Under the pieces are notes generated by a model. The model was not told the DNA's origin, made no database searches, and was given only the letters and a program-made list of their open reading frames with translations. A stretch of DNA of 64,000 nt from a virus. The stretch covers positions 1 through 64,000 of the IMG/VR virus record IMGVR_UViG_3300037137_001027; one strand, 5' to 3'. The position numbers and the translations under genes are program-made. Of the stretch, positions 7,916 through 58,960 are shown in pieces. Each line of letters begins with the position of its first letter. Positions within the stretch are counted from its first letter, which is position 1.

Positions 7916-8905
7916 TTATATATCTACCTCTGCACCTATTTGTAGGCTATTAACTAAAGTCTCATCCCAAGGATTATTAGTCACAGGTTCCCGCTCGAAA
8001 ATATATTGATACTCTAAATAGCTACTGGTCACAGGGGTAGTTGTGCCAGACCCTAAATTTATGCCACTTTTAGCCAAAGGTATAAATCCTATAGAACCAG
8101 TATTATCTTTTCTGGCTACTGTATTAACCGCAATGCCTGGAATAACAATCGTTTGTCCAACAGGCATATCAGCTATTGTGTATAAATCCTGGTCAGTATC
8201 AACACCACTATAAACATAACTTGTATCACCATCAAAAGGTTGCTCAATAACTGCCTGCCAATTAGTAGCGGCTCCAAACAAACTAAAATCTGTTACGGCA
8301 CCTGGGCCATCAGGGAATAAAGTTAATATCTCGCCATCTTCTATAAAGCTTGTATTATATGTTCCTGTGTTATCACAAATATATAAATCATCATAACCTA
8401 TGGTATTGACTCCATCGCCATTTAGTACAAAACCACTTCCTGAACCCGAACCTAGTAATACAAAACCTGCTGGAGAAGAAAATATCTGTTCTCCGTTCAT
8501 ACGAACTAAAATATTTCCTGCTGCACTCGATGAAAAATTCAATATTGAGACTTCAAAATATATCCAGGTATTTAATGGAATAGGGGAACTTGAATAGGCG
8601 ACGGTACTAGAGGTTATAAATAATAAGGAATTGGTAGGATTGGTTCCTATATCCATTATGTAACTATCGGTATTATCACGCCATTGCATGAAGGCTCCAC
8701 CAGCTTCAGGCAATATTAATGAAAATCCAGCAGTCAAACCCGTTGATGCTCCTACTAATTTCTTAAGTGTGGTTGTACCAAGAAATGCCGCATTGCCACT
8801 AAACCTTCCACTTCCAAGTGTAACCACATTGGCGTTATCCCACTTATATGAAGATTGGAAACTTACAGCACCATATGAGTCGAATCCTTCTAAAAATTTC
8901 ATCAT
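7916..8905 (-). CDS. EGFDSY-type virion protein (lectin-fold-like), copy 2
   Basis: 329 residues. It starts MMKFLEGFDSYG and aligns by eye with the adjacent upstream gene through EGFDSY, Y(K)W, TG(L/F)..GF and the YDD(L/V)YICD(N/T)TG segment. This pattern occurs in phage structural proteins predicted to have a concanavalin-like (LamG) fold. Its start overlaps the stop of the upstream gene by four bases, so translation is probably coupled. Tandem paralogues may form a hetero-oligomer. Confidence 0.75.
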   Translation of the reverse strand: MMKFLEGFDSYGAVSFQSSYKWDNANVVTLGSGRFSGNAAFLGTTTLKKLVGASTGLTAGFSLILPEAGGAFMQWRDNTDSYIMDIGTNPTNSLLFITSSTVAYSSSPIPLNTWIYFEVSILNFSSSAAGNILVRMNGEQIFSSPAGFVLLGSGSGSGFVLNGDGVNTIGYDDLYICDNTGTYNTSFIEDGEILTLFPDGPGAVTDFSLFGAATNWQAVIEQPFDGDTSYVYSGVDTDQDLYTIADMPVGQTIVIPGIAVNTVARKDNTGSIGFIPLAKSGINLGSGTTTPVTSSYLEYQYIFEREPVTNNPWDETLVNSLQIGAEVDI

Positions 8906-9989: not shown

Positions 9990-10379
9990 ATGAAAATTAA
10001 ATTATCCAGCCGAGTTAGAAAATTAATCGAGAAGAACAGTCTGAGTGGTGTGATAGACGGGGTGCTACGGACTACTACGTTGGATAAGCTCCTTATGGAG
10101 TTTTCCAATCAGTGTATTTTTCGCGCCAATGCAGAAAAAGTTAAGAAACGGAAAGCCAGTTGGTATAAGATGGCCCGCGTTTTTCATCGAGCTTGCGACG
10201 AGATGACCCTTGAAAAGACGAAAAAACACGTCTTCAAGGTTGCACGGAGAGACATTTACTTGTGTCCGAAGTGCAAGAAGAAGTTCAAGGTGGATTACGC
10301 AAAAGAAGAGAATTGCAAATTTGAGTTGGATCGCGGCTTGATTGTGGTAAAATGCCCAAATTGTAGTTTCTGTGAATAG
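9990..10379 (+). CDS. Zinc-ribbon protein
   Basis: 129 residues, basic. The C-terminal half has two CxxC pairs (CPKC and CPNC, about residues 92-95 and 122-125), a typical zinc ribbon. The N-terminal half is lysine/arginine-rich and helical. It is the first gene behind a strong early promoter, as expected for a host-takeover protein, but the function is unknown. Confidence 0.75.
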   Translation: MKIKLSSRVRKLIEKNSLSGVIDGVLRTTTLDKLLMEFSNQCIFRANAEKVKKRKASWYKMARVFHRACDEMTLEKTKKHVFKVARRDIYLCPKCKKKFKVDYAKEENCKFELDRGLIVVKCPNCSFCE

Positions 10380-10387
10380 ATAGAAAC

Positions 10388-10594
10388 ATGTGCTGTGGAA
10401 AACGAAAACCAAAAACTAGAGTAAAAATGACCAGAAGTGGATTAAAAAAGAGGTGGCAAAGTCAGTCGGATGACCTTACCACCCCTCATGGAGAACCGAC
10501 AAGTAATACTACAATTACTTCATCTGAAAATCAAGAAATTAATTCTAATTTACCTAATCCTCCTCCATACGATGCGCAGTCATCCCAAGGTTAA
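10388..10594 (+). CDS. Small hypothetical protein
   Basis: 68 residues starting MCCGKRKPK; polar, low complexity, ending in a proline-rich NPPPYDAQ segment. It begins 8 bases after the zinc-ribbon gene. No family recognised. The 87 bases after it contain no clear gene. Confidence 0.5.
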   Translation: MCCGKRKPKTRVKMTRSGLKKRWQSQSDDLTTPHGEPTSNTTITSSENQEINSNLPNPPPYDAQSSQG

Positions 10595-10681
10595 TAACCA
10601 AAAGGGTTTATGGCAGGTAAATCTCAAAGTTGTAGAAAGTTCTGGAATCCCGTATCATATTTAGATTCTAAGGATTAAGTT

Positions 10682-11197
10682 ATGCGTGTGAAACCAGTCG
10701 AAACGGTTTGTGATGCTTTTGTTTGTGATGCTGTTCGCTACTACGATCACAGAGGTTCTTTTCAGGAATTATTCTCTCACAAAGACTTGCCTGCTTTCAG
10801 AGTGTCACAAATCAATTGTTCCATATCCAAAAAGAATGTTCTGCGTGGACTTCATGTTGTGCCTTTTGCAAAATTGGTATATTGTGTGAAGGGCAAAATA
10901 TTCGATGTGGTAGCCGATGTGAGAAAAGGATCGAAAACCTATTTGAAATGGTACGGAGTTGAATTAAGTGGCGAAAATCAAAAATCACTTTTCATTCCAC
11001 CTTTCTGTGGGCATGGCTTTCTAGCAATGGAAGACGACTCAATTGTAGTGTATGCACAGGATGCCGTCTATAATGCCCATGCCGAGAGCAGTGTGAACTA
11101 TGCTGATCCTAAACTGAATATTAAATGGCCGAATGTAATTCTTTCTGATAAAGATGGTGCCGCGCCGTTCCTAGATAGTTGTGATGTTGAAAGTTAA
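10682..11197 (+). CDS. RmlC-like dTDP-sugar 3,5-epimerase homologue
   Basis: 171 residues. The sequence follows the RmlC/dTDP-4-dehydrorhamnose 3,5-epimerase pattern: D.RGSF.E, VSQINCS, LRGLH (with the conserved histidine), V.CVKGKIFDV..D.R.GS, and FIPPFCGHGF. Full-length members are about 180 residues, so it is nearly complete. It overlaps the next gene, a glycosyltransferase-like protein, suggesting a two-gene sugar unit. It may modify virion, DNA or host surface glycans. Confidence 0.8.
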   Translation: MRVKPVETVCDAFVCDAVRYYDHRGSFQELFSHKDLPAFRVSQINCSISKKNVLRGLHVVPFAKLVYCVKGKIFDVVADVRKGSKTYLKWYGVELSGENQKSLFIPPFCGHGFLAMEDDSIVVYAQDAVYNAHAESSVNYADPKLNIKWPNVILSDKDGAAPFLDSCDVES

Positions 11198-26140: not shown

Positions 26141-27841
26141 ATGAAAACACTTATCTGTCAGACTAATCCTACCCCTAATGATTTTCATGGCAATTGCCAG
26201 CAAATTGTCACTGGACTCCGCGAAGGATATAAAAAGAATGCTGACCTAATCGTATTTCCAGAGTTGGCTATCCCTGGCTATCTCTGTAAGGATATGATGT
26301 TCCGCAAGGGCTTTGTAGATCAAAACCTGGACTGTCTACATAGTCTTCCAGGTTATCTTGAAGCTGATTATGAACCGCATATCGTGATTGGTTATATCGA
26401 CCGTAACTACAGTGGCATGGGCAAACCGTTCCGTAATATGGCGGCGGTATTCCACGGTCGTCGTTTAATTGCCACCTATCAGAAACATCTATTGCCGTTC
26501 TATGACGTTTTCGATGAAGGGCGATACTTCCAGCCTGGTACTGACCTAGCGGTGGTTGAAATCTGCGGTGAAAAATGGGGTATTTGCATTTGCGAAGACC
26601 TATGGAATGACAAAGGTAGTGACGATTACAATTACCAATGCAATCCCCTAGAAGACTACCGCAAGCGTGGTGTTTACAACATCATTAGCATTAATAGCTC
26701 ACCATTCGTGCGCAACAAGCCAAAGAATCGCATGACTATGGTAGCTAAAAGCGCTGATTTGGGGACTATTATCTATTGCAATCAGATTGGTGGTCAGGAC
26801 GAATTGGTATTTGATGGCAATAGTTTTATTGTTGAAAAAGGTCATGTTCGTAGTTGCGCTGGCATGAAGACTTATCAGCTTTATGATAGCGATAACAAGC
26901 TCGATCAATGGGGTTCTATTCTACGCGAAGAAACCTATGATATGCTCCAATTGGGCTTGAAAGACTATATCCGAAAAAGCGGTTTCAAGGAAGTGGTGGT
27001 CGGCTCCAGCGGCGGTATCGACAGCGCATTAGTATTGTCGCTGGCGTGCGATGCTATTGGGCCAGAGAACGTCCACGGTATTCGTATGCCATCCACCATT
27101 AGTAGCGATCATTCTAAGAGTGATGCTGAGCAATTGCATAAGAATTTGGGCTGTCACGATCATTTGGTTCCTATTGACCATGAGCCATTTGTCCAGAATA
27201 TCCTTGGACATTTGTTGAATATGGAAGAACCAAAGCCTATCGCAAATGAGAACATTCAGGCTCGCTTGCGTGGCATGATCCTAATGTATTACTCAAACGC
27301 CTTTAATGCTCTATTGCTTTCAACGGGCAATAAGACTGAATTGGCGCTAGGGTATTGCACACTTTATGGGGACATGAATGGCGGTTTCTGTCCTATTAAT
27401 GACCTGTATAAAATGCAGGTTTATGAAATGGCGCGGTTCTACAACAAAGATGCTCGCATGGGCCGCAAGCCTAATATGATCCCTGAAAACATCTTGAATA
27501 AGGCTCCAAGCGCTGAACTAGCGCCAGGGCAGACGGACGAAGCAAGTTTGTTACCATATCCTGTTTTGGATGCGATTGTTCAGGGTTACGTTGAGCATTT
27601 TATTGGGGATTTCAAAAGCTTTTGGATACATTGTTTTGGTGCAGACATGTTCGCGGCTAAGCATGTGGAAGATGGCGTTCTTGGCAATTGGTTCAAAGGT
27701 AAGGATGCCGAGGAACAATATAACAGAATGCTTCGCTTAATCAATAATAACGAATTTAAGCGGCGGCAAGCTGCTCCTGGTATCAAGGTCACACCAATTG
27801 CGTTCGGTATTGGGCGCAGACTTCCTATCGTTAAAGGTTAA
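26141..27841 (+). CDS. nadE: Glutamine-dependent NAD+ synthetase
   Basis: 566 residues, the full two-domain enzyme. The N-terminal nitrilase-type glutaminase has Glu41 (FPELA), Lys115 (YQKHLLPFYDVFDEGRYF) and the nucleophile Cys151 (GICICEDLW). The synthetase domain has the SSGGIDSALV ATP-pyrophosphatase loop near residue 290, RMPS..SS..S and STGNKTELALGYCTLYGDM. It converts deamido-NAD, ATP and glutamine to NAD+. In a phage it could restore NAD+ after host NAD-depleting defence or supply NAD-using enzymes. Confidence 0.92.
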   Translation: MKTLICQTNPTPNDFHGNCQQIVTGLREGYKKNADLIVFPELAIPGYLCKDMMFRKGFVDQNLDCLHSLPGYLEADYEPHIVIGYIDRNYSGMGKPFRNMAAVFHGRRLIATYQKHLLPFYDVFDEGRYFQPGTDLAVVEICGEKWGICICEDLWNDKGSDDYNYQCNPLEDYRKRGVYNIISINSSPFVRNKPKNRMTMVAKSADLGTIIYCNQIGGQDELVFDGNSFIVEKGHVRSCAGMKTYQLYDSDNKLDQWGSILREETYDMLQLGLKDYIRKSGFKEVVVGSSGGIDSALVLSLACDAIGPENVHGIRMPSTISSDHSKSDAEQLHKNLGCHDHLVPIDHEPFVQNILGHLLNMEEPKPIANENIQARLRGMILMYYSNAFNALLLSTGNKTELALGYCTLYGDMNGGFCPINDLYKMQVYEMARFYNKDARMGRKPNMIPENILNKAPSAELAPGQTDEASLLPYPVLDAIVQGYVEHFIGDFKSFWIHCFGADMFAAKHVEDGVLGNWFKGKDAEEQYNRMLRLINNNEFKRRQAAPGIKVTPIAFGIGRRLPIVKG

Positions 27842-48090: not shown

Positions 48091-48360
48091 ATGGAAGAAT
48101 TTGTAACTGCCGACCTTCTTAAACCTGGCGATATAATAAAATGTATATGCGAACAAGGATGTGTCAAGCCTGATACATGCCAGCAAATGCACTGTAAAAA
48201 CGATCCATGCAATACCACGCCACAAGGAACCTGGGAAAAGGTACTCCATGTCGCTATTCAACCCGCCACTAATAGCGACTGGTTTTACTTTACTTTAACC
48301 CATAATAAAGAATTTGGGACGTGGGGTAAGAACTTAGTTATACGCTTCAAACCCGATTGA
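48091..48360 (+). CDS. Cys-rich hypothetical protein
   Basis: 89 residues with six cysteines between residues 19 and 40 (CICEQGC, C, CKNDPC). May bind metal. No Shine-Dalgarno; late-like octamer upstream. Its TGA stop lies in element copy 18. Confidence 0.6.
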   Translation: MEEFVTADLLKPGDIIKCICEQGCVKPDTCQQMHCKNDPCNTTPQGTWEKVLHVAIQPATNSDWFYFTLTHNKEFGTWGKNLVIRFKPD

Positions 48361-48371
48361 GGTTGTACTAA
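48356..48371 (+). promoter_or_regulatory. GTACTAA element copy 18
   Basis: ATTGAGGTTGTACTAA, then TCAAGTC and the ATG: 7-base spacing, no Shine-Dalgarno. Confidence 0.8.
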
Positions 48372-48378
48372 TCAAGTC

Positions 48379-48624
48379 ATGCAAGACCCCAAGCTAGACC
48401 TGAAACACTTTCACTGGCATAAGGAAACTCGTACACTCACAACCGAGTTGTCTAGCCTGCCCATTAAGGTGCTGCCTTTCTATATCACTATTGAGAATCC
48501 CCAAACGGGGCAGTCTCGCGTGTTTAGAAAGGCAAATGTGGACGCAAACGAAGAAGGTGAAGTGCTGGCTTGGAAGTATGAAAACCTGAGTCATTCACTC
48601 CGTTTAACAATTTGGAACGATTAA
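48379..48624 (+). CDS. Small hypothetical protein (leaderless-type start)
   Basis: 81 residues, beta-rich (VLPFYITIENPQTGQSRVFR). Start 7 bases after element copy 18. No family. Confidence 0.6.
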   Translation: MQDPKLDLKHFHWHKETRTLTTELSSLPIKVLPFYITIENPQTGQSRVFRKANVDANEEGEVLAWKYENLSHSLRLTIWND

Positions 48625-52552: not shown

Positions 52553-53326
52553 TCACGGAGTTTTATAACTTTTGATCCTGGGAGCGATAATTTCATCAAT
52601 ATAAATGGCGCTGATTTCATTCAAAATGAAATTTCGCTTATTGAGTATGCAGGACACAGCTTCGCTCCCCGAACCGCCAAAGGGGATATAAACTAAATCG
52701 CCTTCATTGGAACTAGCCTTGATAATCCGTTCGCACAGCTTGAGGGATTTTACAGTAGGAAACGCTGATCCATCACTAAGGTAAAAGCGTTCTTTTGAAC
52801 TTTGGCTTGCTTCGGTTATATCTGCCCAAACGTCGGTGCATCTTTTGAATTTGTTCTTGCGTGGCTTGCCATCGAATCCTAAATCCTTGCGGTTTGTAGG
52901 CTCATCCAGGTATATTGGGTTCCAAATGTACTTATCGCCTTTAGCCATGAATACTAATTCTTCTCTGGAATGGACAAAACCCTTTTTCGTTCCTCTGCCC
53001 CTGCTGTTTCTTTGGGTTATCCAATTGATTACTTTGAATAAGTTGTTCTGCTCTACCCACTCGGCCAATCGAAATAGGGGGTAGCCCTTATTATAACCAA
53101 TGGTCCCCCATAGGTAGAACGTACCATTAGGCTTTAATACTTTATGGCACCCTTTGATCCAGCGCTGGCACCAAGCTAGGTATTCATCAAGGGATTTCCA
53201 AATGAAATCAAATTCGCCACATATTTCAAAATAAGGCGGATCGGCAATGACTAAATCGAATATGCTGGGTTCGCAAGAATCGAGATATTCAATGCAATCT
53301 ATGTTGTTTATTGTATTGAGTTCCAT
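52553..53326 (-). CDS. Orphan beta-class DNA methyltransferase (N6-adenine/N4-cytosine type)
   Basis: 257 residues on the minus strand. Motif IV ADPPYF (Asp29-Tyr32) near the N-terminus and motif I VYIPFGGSGSEAV near the C-terminus give the beta-class order. The middle holds the target-recognition region. DPPY is compatible with N6-adenine or N4-cytosine methylation of DNA. No restriction enzyme is adjacent, so it probably protects phage DNA or regulates. Divergent from the helicase operon. Confidence 0.85.
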   Translation of the reverse strand: MELNTINNIDCIEYLDSCEPSIFDLVIADPPYFEICGEFDFIWKSLDEYLAWCQRWIKGCHKVLKPNGTFYLWGTIGYNKGYPLFRLAEWVEQNNLFKVINWITQRNSRGRGTKKGFVHSREELVFMAKGDKYIWNPIYLDEPTNRKDLGFDGKPRKNKFKRCTDVWADITEASQSSKERFYLSDGSAFPTVKSLKLCERIIKASSNEGDLVYIPFGGSGSEAVSCILNKRNFILNEISAIYIDEIIAPRIKSYKTP

Positions 53327-53355: not shown

Positions 53356-53405
53356 AAAAAATACAGCAATTAGCGGCATCTGAAAAAAATACAGCAGATG
53401 CCGCT
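53356..53405. promoter_or_regulatory. Divergent control region: direct repeats and inverted repeat
   Basis: AAAAAATACAGCA occurs twice (53356-53368, 53384-53396). AGCGGCATCTG (53372-53382) pairs with CAGATGCCGCT (53395-53405), whose last base is the first base of the -35 of promoter 6. The arrangement resembles an operator between the divergent methyltransferase and helicase genes. Confidence 0.5.
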
Positions 53406-53432
53406 TTACAATCGGAAAAATCGTCGTAGAAT
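53405..53432 (+). promoter_or_regulatory. Sigma70-like early promoter 6
   Basis: TTTACA (53405-53410), 16-base spacer ending ATCGTCG, TAGAAT (53427-53432). Element copy 22 begins 7 bases after it. Confidence 0.65.
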
Positions 53433-53438
53433 AAGGTT

Positions 53439-53454
53439 ATCGCGGTTGTACTGA
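53439..53454 (+). promoter_or_regulatory. GTACTAA element copy 22 (variant)
   Basis: ATCGCGGTTGTACTGA, two mismatches. Next ATG 39 bases downstream. Confidence 0.6.
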
Positions 53455-53493
53455 ACAGGGAAGCGACACCTCATTAGGGAGAAAACTAGCTTT

Positions 53494-54369
53494 ATGTTCC
53501 AACCAAAACTGACGGTTTCATCTTCTCACAAGGCTGAAAAACTTGTGAAGATCATGGGTGGTAGCTCGTTGCCATATAGTAACAAAGGTGTTACTGTAGA
53601 TCAAGTCAAAAAGATCATGGATGGCGTTATTGCGTCATCGGGTTACATGTCGTTTGTCCTTAATGCCATGTTGGGTGGTTTGGGTGATATTAAAATCTGC
53701 ACCAAAAAGCTTGAAAAGCAGTTAAGTGACCCTGAAGCTTACGGATGGCTCCAGAAAAAGGGCGTGCAATATGTAGTTGATGGTAAGTTTAAGGGCGTAT
53801 GGACACGGCAACACGTCCTTACTATTGGCACTACTTTGTATCGCTGGTATGAGGATGAGCGCCGCAATCCGTTAATTTGGGGGACCGAGCAAGCCGCTAA
53901 AACTATCGTTTATTGCTCTGTTTTCCTCTTACTGCCTTGTATCGAATGGCTCGCCCGCCGCAGGCTAGTGATTCCTTTAGTGTTTAGTGCTAATAGGAAT
54001 AATATCACTCTCAGTGCGCAAAAAGAACTTGAATGTCTTCTGGACCTATATGAGCATGTAGAGCTTATTTTTAATGGCGAGCGCCTACCTCTCAGCTATG
54101 TTAGAAATGAAATTTTGGATAAGAATATCCGAGCGTGTTATGATAACCATAATACAGACTGGACTAATTTGGTCTTTAACCGCGAACCTTCTGCCCTGGC
54201 CCGCTTCGTTGAAAAAATCGTCCTTAATAACAAAGACGTAGATTGCACTTTCGTCCCAATTTTAGATGAGGTGCAAATTGGTTCCGCTGTCGGTGGGCTG
54301 GTTGACCGCGTGATGCAACAATTAAAACTTATTAAGTCTGACCAAGAATTAAAGGCATTGGTTTCTTAA
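53494..54369 (+). CDS. SF2-like helicase, N-terminal half (motifs I-II)
   Basis: 291 residues. NPLIWGTEQAAKTIVY is in the position of a degenerate Walker A loop (GSGKT expected), RLVIPLVFSANR resembles motif Ia, and ILDEVQIG near the C-terminus is a DExx-box. The protein stops about 30 residues later, before motif III. The remaining motifs are in the gene at 54589, so the helicase is split. Confidence 0.6.
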   Translation: MFQPKLTVSSSHKAEKLVKIMGGSSLPYSNKGVTVDQVKKIMDGVIASSGYMSFVLNAMLGGLGDIKICTKKLEKQLSDPEAYGWLQKKGVQYVVDGKFKGVWTRQHVLTIGTTLYRWYEDERRNPLIWGTEQAAKTIVYCSVFLLLPCIEWLARRRLVIPLVFSANRNNITLSAQKELECLLDLYEHVELIFNGERLPLSYVRNEILDKNIRACYDNHNTDWTNLVFNREPSALARFVEKIVLNNKDVDCTFVPILDEVQIGSAVGGLVDRVMQQLKLIKSDQELKALVS

Positions 54370-54392
54370 CCCTTTTTACGACGGAGGATTTA

Positions 54393-54569
54393 ATGTTTAT
54401 TTTCGTGTCTGCTACACCTGTCTGCCTAGTGATTGACGAAACTCACTATGGGACTGAGTATCAAGGTGCCTGCCGCTGGCTTGTTCGCCTATCGGCAGGG
54501 CGCATTCATTCAGGAATTGACGAAACTTACTATGGGATTGCGATTTTTAACGGCACAACTTTGTCCTAA
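54393..54569 (+). CDS. Short ORF with a second helicase motif III (duplicate fragment)
   Basis: 58 residues with a strong ggagga Shine-Dalgarno. FVSATP...VIDET...GACRWLVRL...IFNGTTLS parallels AVSATP...WIDET...GQWLARFNGMVLPTLS at the start of the next gene. It also contains its own 25-base direct repeat (54432-54456 and 54516-54540) encoding IDET(H/Y)YG. It looks like a partial duplication of the motif III region. Confidence 0.5.
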   Translation: MFIFVSATPVCLVIDETHYGTEYQGACRWLVRLSAGRIHSGIDETYYGIAIFNGTTLS

Positions 54570-54588
54570 CTGTAATCAAGAGGTGTAT

Positions 54589-55455
54589 ATGGCTATTCAT
54601 ATTAGGGAAATCGCTGTCTCTGCTACTCCTACTGAACAATGGACTAAGTTCAAGTATGCCCGCTGTCCATTGTGGATTGATGAAACCCAAGGTCAATGGC
54701 TCGCACGTTTTAATGGCATGGTGCTACCTACGCTCTCAGGCGTTGAGCCTACGCCGCCGACTGTCCTTGCCCTGGAAGATGAATTTCCATCGCTTCGCCC
54801 CTATCTGGCGAATTCCGAAGACAGAAAGAAGTATAATCTCTGCAATGATCCTAAATTTGCCAAAGAACTTCTATCTGTCCTTTCTGGCCTTGTAAGCAAG
54901 AATAAGAATTGCGTCTTCTTGCGACCTGATAGCCGCAAGAAAAATTGCCGCAAGCTGACCGAGATTTTAAGTGGAATGGACCAGCATATCAAGTTTGATA
55001 TGCTCACCTACTTTGGAGCGCTGGATAAGGCTCTCTTTGGTGACAGCACTAAGAATCAGATGAAGACGGTAAAGGAAGTTCTGCTTGACGGATACCGCAA
55101 TAAGGATGCTTATGCAATCTTGGTGACTGGTAGTGGTCGCAGTAAATACGGGGATTCCTTCCCGAACATCATGTCTTATCATTTTGATTTCTATAATTCT
55201 CCCTTTAATTGGGAGAGTTTGCGGCAAGCAACGATTGGCCGCTCTTGCGGATTCTTTAAGGATTCTTTCGTCTACATGCGAAAGAATCTGGTCCGTGAAT
55301 GGAATTATTATTATGCCAATGGTTGTAAGGACGACCGCGTTGATGGACGCGACCCTAGCAATCGTTCCAGGCATTATCTCAATAAACGTCGTCGTGGTCG
55401 GGCTTCGCTAACCGCTCGCATTAACTTCCAAGATTGGAGTAGCTTCAATGCGTGA
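54589..55455 (+). CDS. SF2-like helicase, C-terminal half (motifs III-VI)
   Basis: 288 residues from the ATG at 54589 (aagaggtg upstream). Motif III VSATP at residues 10-14, motif IV-like NCVFLRPDSRK, motif V-like AILVTGSGRSKYGDSFPNI and motif VI-like ESLRQATIGRSCGF. The C-terminus is basic (NKRRRGRASL). With the gene at 53494 it would form one helicase; whether the two chains associate is unknown. Confidence 0.6.
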   Translation: MAIHIREIAVSATPTEQWTKFKYARCPLWIDETQGQWLARFNGMVLPTLSGVEPTPPTVLALEDEFPSLRPYLANSEDRKKYNLCNDPKFAKELLSVLSGLVSKNKNCVFLRPDSRKKNCRKLTEILSGMDQHIKFDMLTYFGALDKALFGDSTKNQMKTVKEVLLDGYRNKDAYAILVTGSGRSKYGDSFPNIMSYHFDFYNSPFNWESLRQATIGRSCGFFKDSFVYMRKNLVREWNYYYANGCKDDRVDGRDPSNRSRHYLNKRRRGRASLTARINFQDWSSFNA

Positions 55456-56233
55456 TATTAACTCTTCTGATATTCAGACCGATTTGATTAAGGATATTCA
55501 GAAGAACTTATGGGAGAATCTGAATAATTCTAAATTTAAGCGGCTGCAAGCCCCCGCCCAAGTTGGCGCTGCTGATATGCACTTTTATAAAAAAGTGTTT
55601 CCTAACGACGTTTTGAAAGCGTTGGAGTCTACAGGCACCGTCTTTTCTTTATGGGGAACAGTAATCACGCTTAAAAAGCGTAATCGTCCTAACCAAAAGC
55701 TTTATATTGGGTGCGGTCCTGATGGCTTTGCACCTGTCGGCCTTCGGTGGTGTCGGGACGCCACGGAATGGAAGCAAACAAATAAGCAGACTCGCCAAGT
55801 GGATAAGAGAGGCAATATCCAGATTTGGCGACCGCAGATTATCGTTACCATGCGGCCACAACATCTTTATGATAAGTGGCGCAATGATTCTTATTTTACT
55901 TCCGACAATGACAAAAGTGGCGGAAGTCGTAAATTCATTACAAGCCGTATCATCGCTCAACCCGAATGGAAAGATGTTAAAATTGTGCCGCTCCAGGTAA
56001 CACTCAGGATCACTAGCCATAGTAGCCACAGCTTCCCCACAGAAGCCTTGCAATACTCTAAAGGTATTGAAACCACAGAAGAGAGTCGGCATCATCATGA
56101 TGATGAAGAGTTTCTTAAGGATTCAGATTTCAAATCAAGACTTGGCAACGAAGAAGGACATATTAACGGGATGCTGGACTACCTGCGTAAGATTAACAAG
56201 CAGTATAACGAAGAGGTTGGCGTATCATGGTAG
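55448..56233 (+). CDS. Hypothetical protein of the helicase operon
   Basis: 261 residues, overlapping the helicase C-terminal half by 8 bases. No family recognised. Beta-rich centre (KLYIGCGPDGFAPVGLRWCR), a His-rich stretch (SRHHHDDEE) and a charged C-terminus. Its tight coupling between helicase and methyltransferase-like genes suggests a shared DNA or RNA process. Confidence 0.65.
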   Translation: MRDINSSDIQTDLIKDIQKNLWENLNNSKFKRLQAPAQVGAADMHFYKKVFPNDVLKALESTGTVFSLWGTVITLKKRNRPNQKLYIGCGPDGFAPVGLRWCRDATEWKQTNKQTRQVDKRGNIQIWRPQIIVTMRPQHLYDKWRNDSYFTSDNDKSGGSRKFITSRIIAQPEWKDVKIVPLQVTLRITSHSSHSFPTEALQYSKGIETTEESRHHHDDEEFLKDSDFKSRLGNEEGHINGMLDYLRKINKQYNEEVGVSW

Positions 56234-57174
56234 ACTGGACATTACGAAACAATAAACGTTTCCAAAGAGAACAACTCTTCGTTGGCGTGCCGCCTGTCAC
56301 TAACTACCTGACCCTTCCAGGGAACCAGGCGCTTGATGTGATTGAAGGGGCAAGCGAAGGAATTCTTACTAAGGGAACGCATATCTGCGCTGCCGAACGA
56401 GATAAGGAAGCCTATAAGGAAGCCAAAATTTGGTTCCGTGACAATTGGCCTGGGACAGTAAGTTTTTTCTGTGATGATTTACACCAGCTTAAACTAGACC
56501 GTCCTTATGATCTAGTCTTTCTGGATTATTTGGGCAATATCAGTCGAAGCGGAATTACATGGATGGAATCGGAATTACAGAATAATTTGGCTCCACTGGC
56601 ACGGGTTGCTCTTACCACTCTCAAAAGTTTTCGTGGCAATAAATTCTTTGCTCATTTGTATGGTAAACTCCATCAGGAATTGCCAGCACTAATGAAAAAA
56701 GATGCTATTACCTGGAGAGATAGAGGAAGTTATCCGATAAGTATGCTAGGGTATTTGTCGGTCTATAGCGTCTTGCTAAAGACGTTTATTTTCACCAGGA
56801 ATGTTTACCATATTTCTGCTTATTTTTATGGTGAAAACACTGCATCGGTTATGATCTTTTTCACCATTGATTTTAAGGAAGGGGTCCGCTGCCTAACACC
56901 AGAAGAAATACACGCTCAGCAAATAATTAGTGGCGTTTTAGGTTGTTCTGTTTCTAAACCATTTTCAGGAGAGGTTCCAATGGCAACAGCTAGTGAGTAT
57001 GTGGATAAGTTCTTGGCCGCTCCCAAGACTTATGACAGTATGCGGGGCTTGAAAGCAAGCCTCACTAAGTTCTGTGAGAAGAAAGAGCGCGAGACTGGTA
57101 CACCCGCTCGACGTTTTCGCGCCGCTATCAAGGCGGTCATTACCCGTAAGGGTGGCGACTCAAGCAGCTTGTAA
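56227..57174 (+). CDS. Methyltransferase-like protein with basic C-terminal domain
   Basis: 315 residues. ALDVIEGASEGILTKGTHICAAERD, then FFCDDLHQLKLDRPYDLVFLDYLGN, look like the SAM-binding core of a class I methyltransferase (acidic end of beta2, D at beta3, LDYLG in place of the catalytic motif). A basic C-terminal domain of 64 residues follows an in-frame ATG (56980) with its own aggagagg, so a short isoform may be made. Last gene of the helicase operon. Confidence 0.5.
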   Translation: MVDWTLRNNKRFQREQLFVGVPPVTNYLTLPGNQALDVIEGASEGILTKGTHICAAERDKEAYKEAKIWFRDNWPGTVSFFCDDLHQLKLDRPYDLVFLDYLGNISRSGITWMESELQNNLAPLARVALTTLKSFRGNKFFAHLYGKLHQELPALMKKDAITWRDRGSYPISMLGYLSVYSVLLKTFIFTRNVYHISAYFYGENTASVMIFFTIDFKEGVRCLTPEEIHAQQIISGVLGCSVSKPFSGEVPMATASEYVDKFLAAPKTYDSMRGLKASLTKFCEKKERETGTPARRFRAAIKAVITRKGGDSSSL

Positions 57175-57530: not shown

Positions 57531-57574
57531 TCAGGGCAGAACAAGTCACCTAACTCTTAATGGAGAATAGAACA

Positions 57575-58960
57575 ATGTCTTACCTGATGATTAGGAATCC
57601 TGGCGTTGCTGATCCCTCCGCTTTTACCCTGTTGGGCGTTTCGACTACCCGCTACTCTGGCACCGCTGGCACCATCGGCCAGTATGGTAGCGGTAGCAAG
57701 AATGCCCTGGCCAAGTTGCTGCGGGATAATCATAATCCCGTTATCGTTCCTGGCAATTTGAAGATGGAATTCTTCTCCCGTCCCCGTATCATCGGTGGAC
57801 AGGAATTCAATCAGGTTTGCGTTAAGTATTCGGGCAAGGATTTTGACGGCACTAGCCGCACCTCTACCGAAGACCTTGGCTTCACCCTGGAATGGGGCGT
57901 CCAAGATTGGACCAACATTGCAATGGCGTTTCGTGAATTTGTCGCTAATGCAATCGACGGTGCTACCGTGTCTGGTGGTACTTATAAGGATGTGGAATTC
58001 GAGGTGGTCGATAAGCCCCGCGCCAAGGCTGGCTATACCGCCGTCTTCCTGCCCCTTACTCCTGAAATTCAGGAATGCTGGAAGCAGTTGGGTACTCTTT
58101 TCCTTCATTTCTCTCAGCCGCATTTGCTCGGCTCTAAGATTCTCCCGAAACTCAGCACTGGTAAAAATGTCCTAATCTATAAGAAGGGCGTCCTCGTCTC
58201 CCGCGTCGAAGAGGAAAGCGTCTTTGATTACAACTTGGGCGATGAATTGAGCCTGGATGAATCCCGTAATGCGCAAGTTTGGGACGTGCGTTATGCTTGC
58301 TCCAAGGCAATCGGCACCGCTGAAGCTGGCGATTTGGCGAAGATTCTCAAGGCGCAAATTGAAAATCGCAAGGTTTTTGAGAGCAAGTTTGAAACCAGTT
58401 ACGTCCATAATGAATATGATAACAAGGACGTAAAGGATAAGCGAAAGGAAAAGTTCCAAGCTGCCTTCAAGACCGTCGCTGGCAATAATGCCGTCCTTGT
58501 TTCTGGCAAGAAAGCTGTGTCTGATTTCGTCCAGAAAAAGGGTTTTGAGCCTGTTAAGATCGAAGGTAATTGGTTCCAAACTCTTCAGCAGCTAGGCATT
58601 ACGACCGAAGATAATGTCTTGGATGGACTGGAAAAGGAAGGATTCGCTGAGTCCGAAGCGTCTCCCGATATGCTCAAAGCGCTCGATATGGTCTGGAATT
58701 TGCTCGAAACCTATGGTAAACTGAATGGGCGTGAAAAGCCGCCTGTCAAGGGTTTCAATCCCATTATGAGCGCCGAAGCACAGACGGGCGGTATGTACTA
58801 CAAGGGAACCGTATACATTCATACGGACCACGCCACGATGGGTTATATGCTGCTCAAGGTCATGCTGGAGGAAGTTAGCCACCATACGACTGGAGCTACG
58901 GATATGTCCCGCGACCTGCAAGACTACCTGTTCCGCCTGATTGTAGAAACCGCCTTCTAA
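57575..58960 (+). CDS. GHKL-type ATPase with apparently permuted motif order
   Basis: 461 residues from the ATG at 57575 (ggag upstream). A G2-like box IGQYGSGSKNALAKLL (residues 34-49) closely resembles GCLGLGSKSPLAY of the rIIA-like protein, but here it precedes the N box REFVANAID (120-128; Glu121, Asn125, Asp128). A degenerate G1-like IRNPGVAD lies at 6-13. In normal GHKL proteins the order is N, G1, G2. The C-terminal half has no known domain; it contains VSHHTTGATD near the end. Probably a second, permuted rIIA-related ATPase; function unknown. Confidence 0.55.
   Translation: MSYLMIRNPGVADPSAFTLLGVSTTRYSGTAGTIGQYGSGSKNALAKLLRDNHNPVIVPGNLKMEFFSRPRIIGGQEFNQVCVKYSGKDFDGTSRTSTEDLGFTLEWGVQDWTNIAMAFREFVANAIDGATVSGGTYKDVEFEVVDKPRAKAGYTAVFLPLTPEIQECWKQLGTLFLHFSQPHLLGSKILPKLSTGKNVLIYKKGVLVSRVEEESVFDYNLGDELSLDESRNAQVWDVRYACSKAIGTAEAGDLAKILKAQIENRKVFESKFETSYVHNEYDNKDVKDKRKEKFQAAFKTVAGNNAVLVSGKKAVSDFVQKKGFEPVKIEGNWFQTLQQLGITTEDNVLDGLEKEGFAESEASPDMLKALDMVWNLLETYGKLNGREKPPVKGFNPIMSAEAQTGGMYYKGTVYIHTDHATMGYMLLKVMLEEVSHHTTGATDMSRDLQDYLFRLIVETAF

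What the first reader, a model, noticed from the sequence alone, without database searches (positions are those of the whole stretch)
53494..57174. Uncharacterised operon: split SF2-like helicase, unknown protein, methyltransferase-like protein
Four to five coupled genes carry helicase motifs I-II and III-VI on separate chains, a 261-residue protein of no known family, and a class I methyltransferase-like protein with a basic tail. An orphan DNA methyltransferase diverges from the same control region. This could be a DNA modification, replication or counter-restriction system that has not been described.
Basis: partly seen in the sequence, partly recalled or inferred. Interest (0 to 1): 0.68.

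Follow-up and report, generated by a model that had tools for sequence, protein, structure and literature searches.

The report
Broken phage helicase with methyltransferase-like partner
A large phage carries, in its early-gene region, a far-diverged and broken-up version of a two-gene cassette (a DNA-motor protein plus a methyltransferase-like protein) that two related large phages keep intact; no database family describes the pair and its job is unknown, so it is a modest lead, not a proven new system.

Summary
The ORFs are real, at the stated coordinates. They form one unit bounded by copies of an early-region motif (53436, 57171). Two related large phages, G001 (340.9 kb) and LR756511 (595 kb), carry an intact SF2-like ORF (702 and 740 aa) directly followed by a homologue of the last gene. 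So helicase-like plus MTase-like is a conserved pair. Here the helicase-like part lies on separate chains. ORF2 is homologous to the second RecA-like domain. ORF1 is supported only by motifs and their spacing, ORF3 only by position. The break falls inside the first RecA-like domain, between motifs II and III. The spacer holds a decayed second copy of the motif III region and a 55-bp piece copied from another gene of the same phage. That looks like rearrangement, not designed subunits; function cannot be judged. The pair sits at a different place in each phage, and the window's copy is only about 22% identical to the others although neighbouring genes are up to 92% identical: an exchanged accessory cassette. 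The last protein lacks DNA-methylase catalytic motifs; DNA modification is unproven. An ordinary DNA methylase lies next to it here, and one of another class in G001. Both structure predictions failed (pLDDT 41 and 34).

The parts
53436..53454 (+). Early-region motif copy (2 mismatches), the only one before ORF1; probable promoter of the unit
   Evidence: 29 matches in the window against 0.17 expected, all on +; next copies at 57171 and 57512.
53494..54369 (+). ORF1, 291 aa: probable first RecA-like domain (motif I-like GTEQAAKT, motif II-like LDEVQ)
   Evidence: open, coding signal, motif spacing 127 (relatives 120-123). No significant sequence similarity to relatives.
54393..54569 (+). 58-codon frame, probably not a gene: decayed second copy of the motif III region (FVSATP, IDETYYGIAIFNG) with an insert
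   Evidence: second half against start of ORF2 p 0.001, first half against relatives p 0.003-0.005; weak coding signal.
54432..54456 (+). Direct repeat copy 1 flanking the insert
   Evidence: 92% identical to 54516-54540; found nowhere else in the window.
54461..54515 (+). 55-bp insert copied from inside another gene of the same phage (G000:80681-80735)
   Evidence: 98% identity, E 4e-22; donor frame reads KVPAAGLFAYRQGAFIQ.
54516..54540 (+). Direct repeat copy 2 flanking the insert
54589..55455 (+). ORF2, 288 aa: motif III (SATP), second RecA-like domain and motif VI (QATIGRSCG)
   Evidence: BLASTP 9e-5 to the LR756511 protein in a two-sequence search, z 7.7, top of 89 proteins, hhalign E 0.005.
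55448..56233 (+). ORF3, 261 aa: occupies the place of the helicase C-terminal part; no family
   Evidence: Overlaps ORF2 by 8 nt and the next gene by 7 nt, as the intact helicase overlaps the MTase-like gene in L006. Sequence similarity not significant.
56227..57174 (+). MTase-like protein, 315 aa, with conserved basic C-terminal segment
   Evidence: tblastn 1e-10 to LR756511; z 14-28 against two relatives; partial PADLOC mad2 match 8.5e-6; no DPPY-type or conserved PC motif.
52553..53326 (-). Divergently transcribed orphan DNA MTase of the N6/N4 class (DPPY at 29, FGGSG at 216)
   Evidence: Pfam 6e-35; motif order.

Best explanation
The unit at 53436-57171 is this phage's far-diverged version of an early-expressed accessory cassette: a divergent SF2 DNA translocase plus a Rossmann-type, methyltransferase-like partner. 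Shown: the pair is adjacent in three related large phages, intact in two, at three different positions. Shown: in the window the helicase-like part is spread over separate ORFs, with a decayed duplicate and a foreign insert at the break. Inferred: recombination in the early region, probably between two alleles, broke the translocase gene, and the pieces are still translated from their own ribosome sites with the MTase-like gene coupled behind. Inferred: the intact pair acts on DNA early in infection, the translocase moving along DNA and the partner binding SAM or DNA, most likely in protection from host defence or in DNA marking, given that DNA MTase genes lie next to it in two of the three phages. 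Whether the broken translocase still works by reassembly of its chains is open.
For: Intact 740-aa ORF next to the MTase-like homologue in LR756511; intact 702-aa ORF and MTase-like gene overlapping by 8 nt in G001/L006, 43% identical to LR756511. Weak DEAD match to the L006 protein, E 0.009, and weak cpSF2-GREB1 matches, 4e-4 and 3e-3, all below cut-off. ORF2 homology; motif spacing; remnant and insert at the break. Extensive synteny with G001 with the pair at another site and at a third site in LR756511. MTase-like identity 22-23% from the window to both relatives, but 50% between them, where the median of shared proteins is 51%. Single unit between motif copies. D12-class DNA MTase beside the pair in L006.
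Against: ORF1 and ORF3 have no significant sequence similarity to the intact relatives, so calling them parts of one helicase rests on motifs, spacing and position. Only three lineages are known. LR756511 has an HNH gene rather than a DNA MTase beside the pair. No activity is shown for any product, and both structure models are unreliable.
Confidence: 0.5

Rival explanations
1. Functional split translocase: ORF1 and ORF2 (with ORF3) are separate subunits that assemble into one working SF2 motor.
For: All pieces are open, carry coding signal in the right frame, have ribosome-site-like sequences before their starts, and ORF2-ORF3-MTase overlap as in coupled genes. The motif I lysine and motif II DE are kept.
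Against: The break lies inside the first RecA-like domain, next to a decayed duplicate and an insert. Both relatives have one chain. The motif I-like sequence reads AAKT where the relatives have GKN.
Confidence: 0.22
2. Decaying gene: the helicase pieces are remnants without function, and only the MTase-like gene and perhaps ORF3 still matter.
For: Break inside a domain, remnant plus templated insert at the break; degenerate motif I; weak match to the helicase profile.
Against: Four long ORFs without frameshifts and with coding signal no lower than that of many conserved genes of the phage.
Confidence: 0.3
3. ORF1 and ORF3 are new proteins unrelated to the helicase, and ORF2 is a stand-alone domain next to them.
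For: ORF1 and ORF3 do not rank above unrelated proteins in similarity to the relatives (rank 19 and 10 of 88).
Against: Motif I-II pattern and spacing in ORF1; summed length 840 aa against 702-740; conserved overlap with the MTase-like gene.
Confidence: 0.2
4. A phage-borne restriction-modification-like system (orphan DNA MTase plus SF2 motor plus partner) that attacks competing DNA.
For: DNA MTase beside the pair in two of three phages; PADLOC mad2 partial match of the MTase-like protein.
Against: No nuclease family match in the window unit; the two DNA MTases are of different classes; none was seen beside the pair in LR756511.
Confidence: 0.12

Closest known systems
Helicase plus MTase-like pair of uncultured phage LR756511.1 (L001:5717-7939 and 7965-8825)
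   Same: Adjacent genes in the same order; MTase-like 23% identical, E 1e-10; ORF2 homologous to the second RecA-like part.
   Different: Helicase is one 740-aa ORF; HNH gene downstream; different position in the early region.
Helicase plus MTase-like pair of IMGVR_UViG_3300014202_001521 (L006:7956-10064 and 10057-10980)
   Same: Same order and overlapping genes; a DNA MTase gene adjoins; closely related phage (RIIA-like neighbour 86% identical).
   Different: Helicase is one 702-aa ORF; adjoining DNA MTase is D12 class; position corresponds to window 48360-48379.
SF2 DEAD/DEAH helicases (Pfam DEAD; cpSF2-GREB1)
   Same: Motif order I, II, III, VI in the intact relatives.
   Different: Matches below Pfam cut-offs; motif I reads GKN, motif VI lacks the second arginine (QGLxGRAA[GI]).
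MADS mad2 methyltransferase (PADLOC)
   Same: Partial match over residues 48-118 of the MTase-like protein, E 8.5e-6.
   Different: Only one of the system's proteins, partial, and no catalytic motif.

Membership tests
SF2 helicase/translocase | Walker A (motif I) and DExx (motif II) in the first RecA domain | tested here: inconclusive
   ORF1 has GTEQAAKT and LDEVQ at the right spacing, but no family match and no significant similarity to relatives.
SF2 helicase/translocase | Motif III SAT and motif VI QxxGRxxR in ORF2 | tested here: inconclusive
   SATP present; motif VI is QATIGRSCG, without the last arginine; relatives read QGLVGRAAG and QGLAGRAAI.
SF2 helicase/translocase | Two RecA-like folds | tested here: inconclusive
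   Only the intact L006 homologue was modelled, pLDDT 34; ORF1 and ORF2 were not modelled.
Class I SAM methyltransferase | Rossmann fold with SAM-binding motif | tested here: inconclusive
   mad2 partial match; conserved LPG..., E and FLDxxG segments in three homologues; model pLDDT 41 with beta-alpha-beta start.
DNA N6/N4 or C5 methyltransferase (for the 315-aa protein) | [DNS]PP[YF] or PC catalytic motif | tested here: not met
   No DPPY-type motif in any of three homologues; PC only in one, not conserved.
DNA N6/N4 methyltransferase (for 52553-53326) | Pfam N6_N4_Mtase, DPPY and FxGxG | tested here: met
Type III restriction-modification | Mod plus Res with nuclease domain | tested here: not met
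   No Res or nuclease family match for ORF1-3; a nuclease too diverged to match is not excluded.
Known defence systems (PADLOC) | Match of the system's core genes | tested here: not met
   ORF1-3 and the L001 helicase have no match; only partial mad2 for the MTase-like protein.

The most novel reading that the evidence does not exclude
A working SF2 motor assembled from separately encoded RecA-like chains, paired with a methyltransferase-like protein of a new family, forming an undescribed early counter-defence or DNA-marking system of large phages.
Probability: 0.15. Interest if true: 0.65.

Novelty: new variant of a known kind. Interest (0 to 1): 0.38.

Why it matters
The helicase-like and MTase-like proteins match no usable family model, yet stay paired in three related large phages while moving within the early region, which marks the pair as a candidate accessory (possibly counter-defence) system. 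The intact G001 and LR756511 copies are the ones to test. The broken window copy shows how such early-region genes are rearranged.

Tried and rejected
Foreign codon usage of the unit: an in-frame score looked low against a few neighbours, but leave-one-out scores of 21 conserved genes put it inside the normal range; dropped. DNA-motif scans for further relatives gave two false hits (L003, L018) or none (that pattern missed TCN serine codons, so its silence means little). Protein-pattern scans of bacterial genomes and further viral scans gave no new lineage. Homology of ORF1 and ORF3 by sequence: not significant. Structure prediction: MTase-like pLDDT 41, L006 helicase 34; no fold search was run on such models. 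Known RNA family: none. RNA structure in the spacer: not unusual (z -0.87). Sequencing error as cause of the break: unlikely, since the spacer holds 92%-identical repeats and an insert rather than a single-base slip.

Full report
Setting. The window is the first 64 kb of a 159.5-kb virus record. It holds an RIIA homologue, tail genes and NAD synthetase. No phage record matches the region 50-64 kb at DNA level.

Observation. The four ORFs stand at the stated coordinates, with ORF2 best started at ATG 54589. In-frame codon scores are highest in the called frame for ORF1, ORF2, ORF3 and the MTase-like gene and near zero for the 58-codon frame between ORF1 and ORF2. A motif, GTAATTGNGGTTGTACTNA, occurs 29 times in the window on the + strand (0.17 expected). 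One copy precedes ORF1 and the next follows the MTase-like gene, so 53436-57171 behaves as one unit. No family model matched ORF1, ORF3 or the MTase-like protein at a useful level, apart from a partial mad2 match of the last.

Relatives. The MTase-like protein found one phage record, LR756511.1 (E 1e-10). Directly upstream of its homologue is one intact 740-aa ORF with motifs I, II, III and VI. An alignment-guided scan then found IMGVR_UViG_3300014202_001521 and a second contig of the same sample. There an intact 702-aa ORF overlaps the MTase-like gene, and a D12-class DNA MTase adjoins. The two intact helicase-like proteins are 43% identical over 97% of their length.

What the window pieces are. 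ORF2 is homologous to the second RecA-like part: z 7.7 against LR756511, 2.5-3.0 against L006, and by far the best of 89 proteins. ORF1 and ORF3 are not significant by sequence. ORF1 carries a motif I-like and a motif II-like site 127 residues apart, against 120-123 in the relatives, and is the only one of 146 proteins fitting a permissive pattern. That pattern was written after seeing the sequence. ORF3 takes the place of the helicase C-terminus: it overlaps the MTase-like gene by 7 nt, as the intact helicase does by 8 nt in L006.

The break. Between ORF1 and ORF2 lie 219 bases. They contain FVSATP and IDETYYGIAIFNG, which resemble the start of ORF2 and the motif III region of the relatives (p 0.001-0.015). 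Inside is a 55-bp piece, 98% identical to part of another gene of the same phage at 80681-80735, between two 25-bp direct repeats. The break falls between motifs II and III, within the first RecA-like domain. I read this as rearrangement, possibly recombination between two alleles; whether the product still works is undecided.

Movement. Proteins around the locus are mostly 45-92% identical between the window phage and G001, in the same order. The pair sits between window-equivalent positions 48360 and 48379 in G001, between equivalents of 43801 and 45841 in LR756511, and at 53.5-57.2 kb here. The MTase-like protein is 22-23% identical from the window to both, but 50% between G001 and LR756511, close to the 51% median of their shared proteins. 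So the window copy is not simply the local copy inherited in place.

Function. Best guess: an early accessory cassette acting on DNA, protective or marking. The MTase-like protein lacks amino- and C5-methylase catalytic motifs in all three phages, so it is not shown to methylate DNA. The orphan DNA MTase next door does carry DPPY and a strong Pfam match. Both structure predictions are too poor to use.

Known or new. Jumbo-phage surveys describe DNA adenine methylases and a Swi2/Snf2-type SF2 helicase tied to the phage RNA polymerase (PMC7824862); in the passages I read I saw no helicase plus MTase-like pair of this kind. Literature searches were few and limited to open papers.

Noticed in passing
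window 11856-62849 and G000 64020-95094: Motif TTGNGGTTGTACT occurs 75 times, only on +, between 11.8 and 95.1 kb, and not in 104-159.5 kb. G001 has AATTGCAATTGTACC about 51 times in the region read and LR756511 has a TAAAGCTGTACT motif: each phage has its own version, probably an early promoter or processing signal.
   Followed up: partly
54461-54515 and G000:80681-80735: A 55-bp piece of a 96-aa gene is copied into the helicase spacer between 25-bp direct repeats, like a templated insertion.
   Followed up: partly
57560-58960: RIIA-like neighbour of no Pfam family, PHROG 8203 match 1e-26, 86% identical to G001 and 64% to LR756511.
   Followed up: no
53371-53413: Inverted repeat GCGGCATCTG...CAGATGCCGC between the two divergent units, perhaps a terminator or regulatory hairpin (read; weak hits).
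   Followed up: no
26141-27841: Phage NAD synthetase with an amidase domain (Pfam 8e-64 and 5e-16).
   Followed up: no
L001:8894-9616: HNH endonuclease gene directly after the MTase-like gene in LR756511.
   Followed up: no
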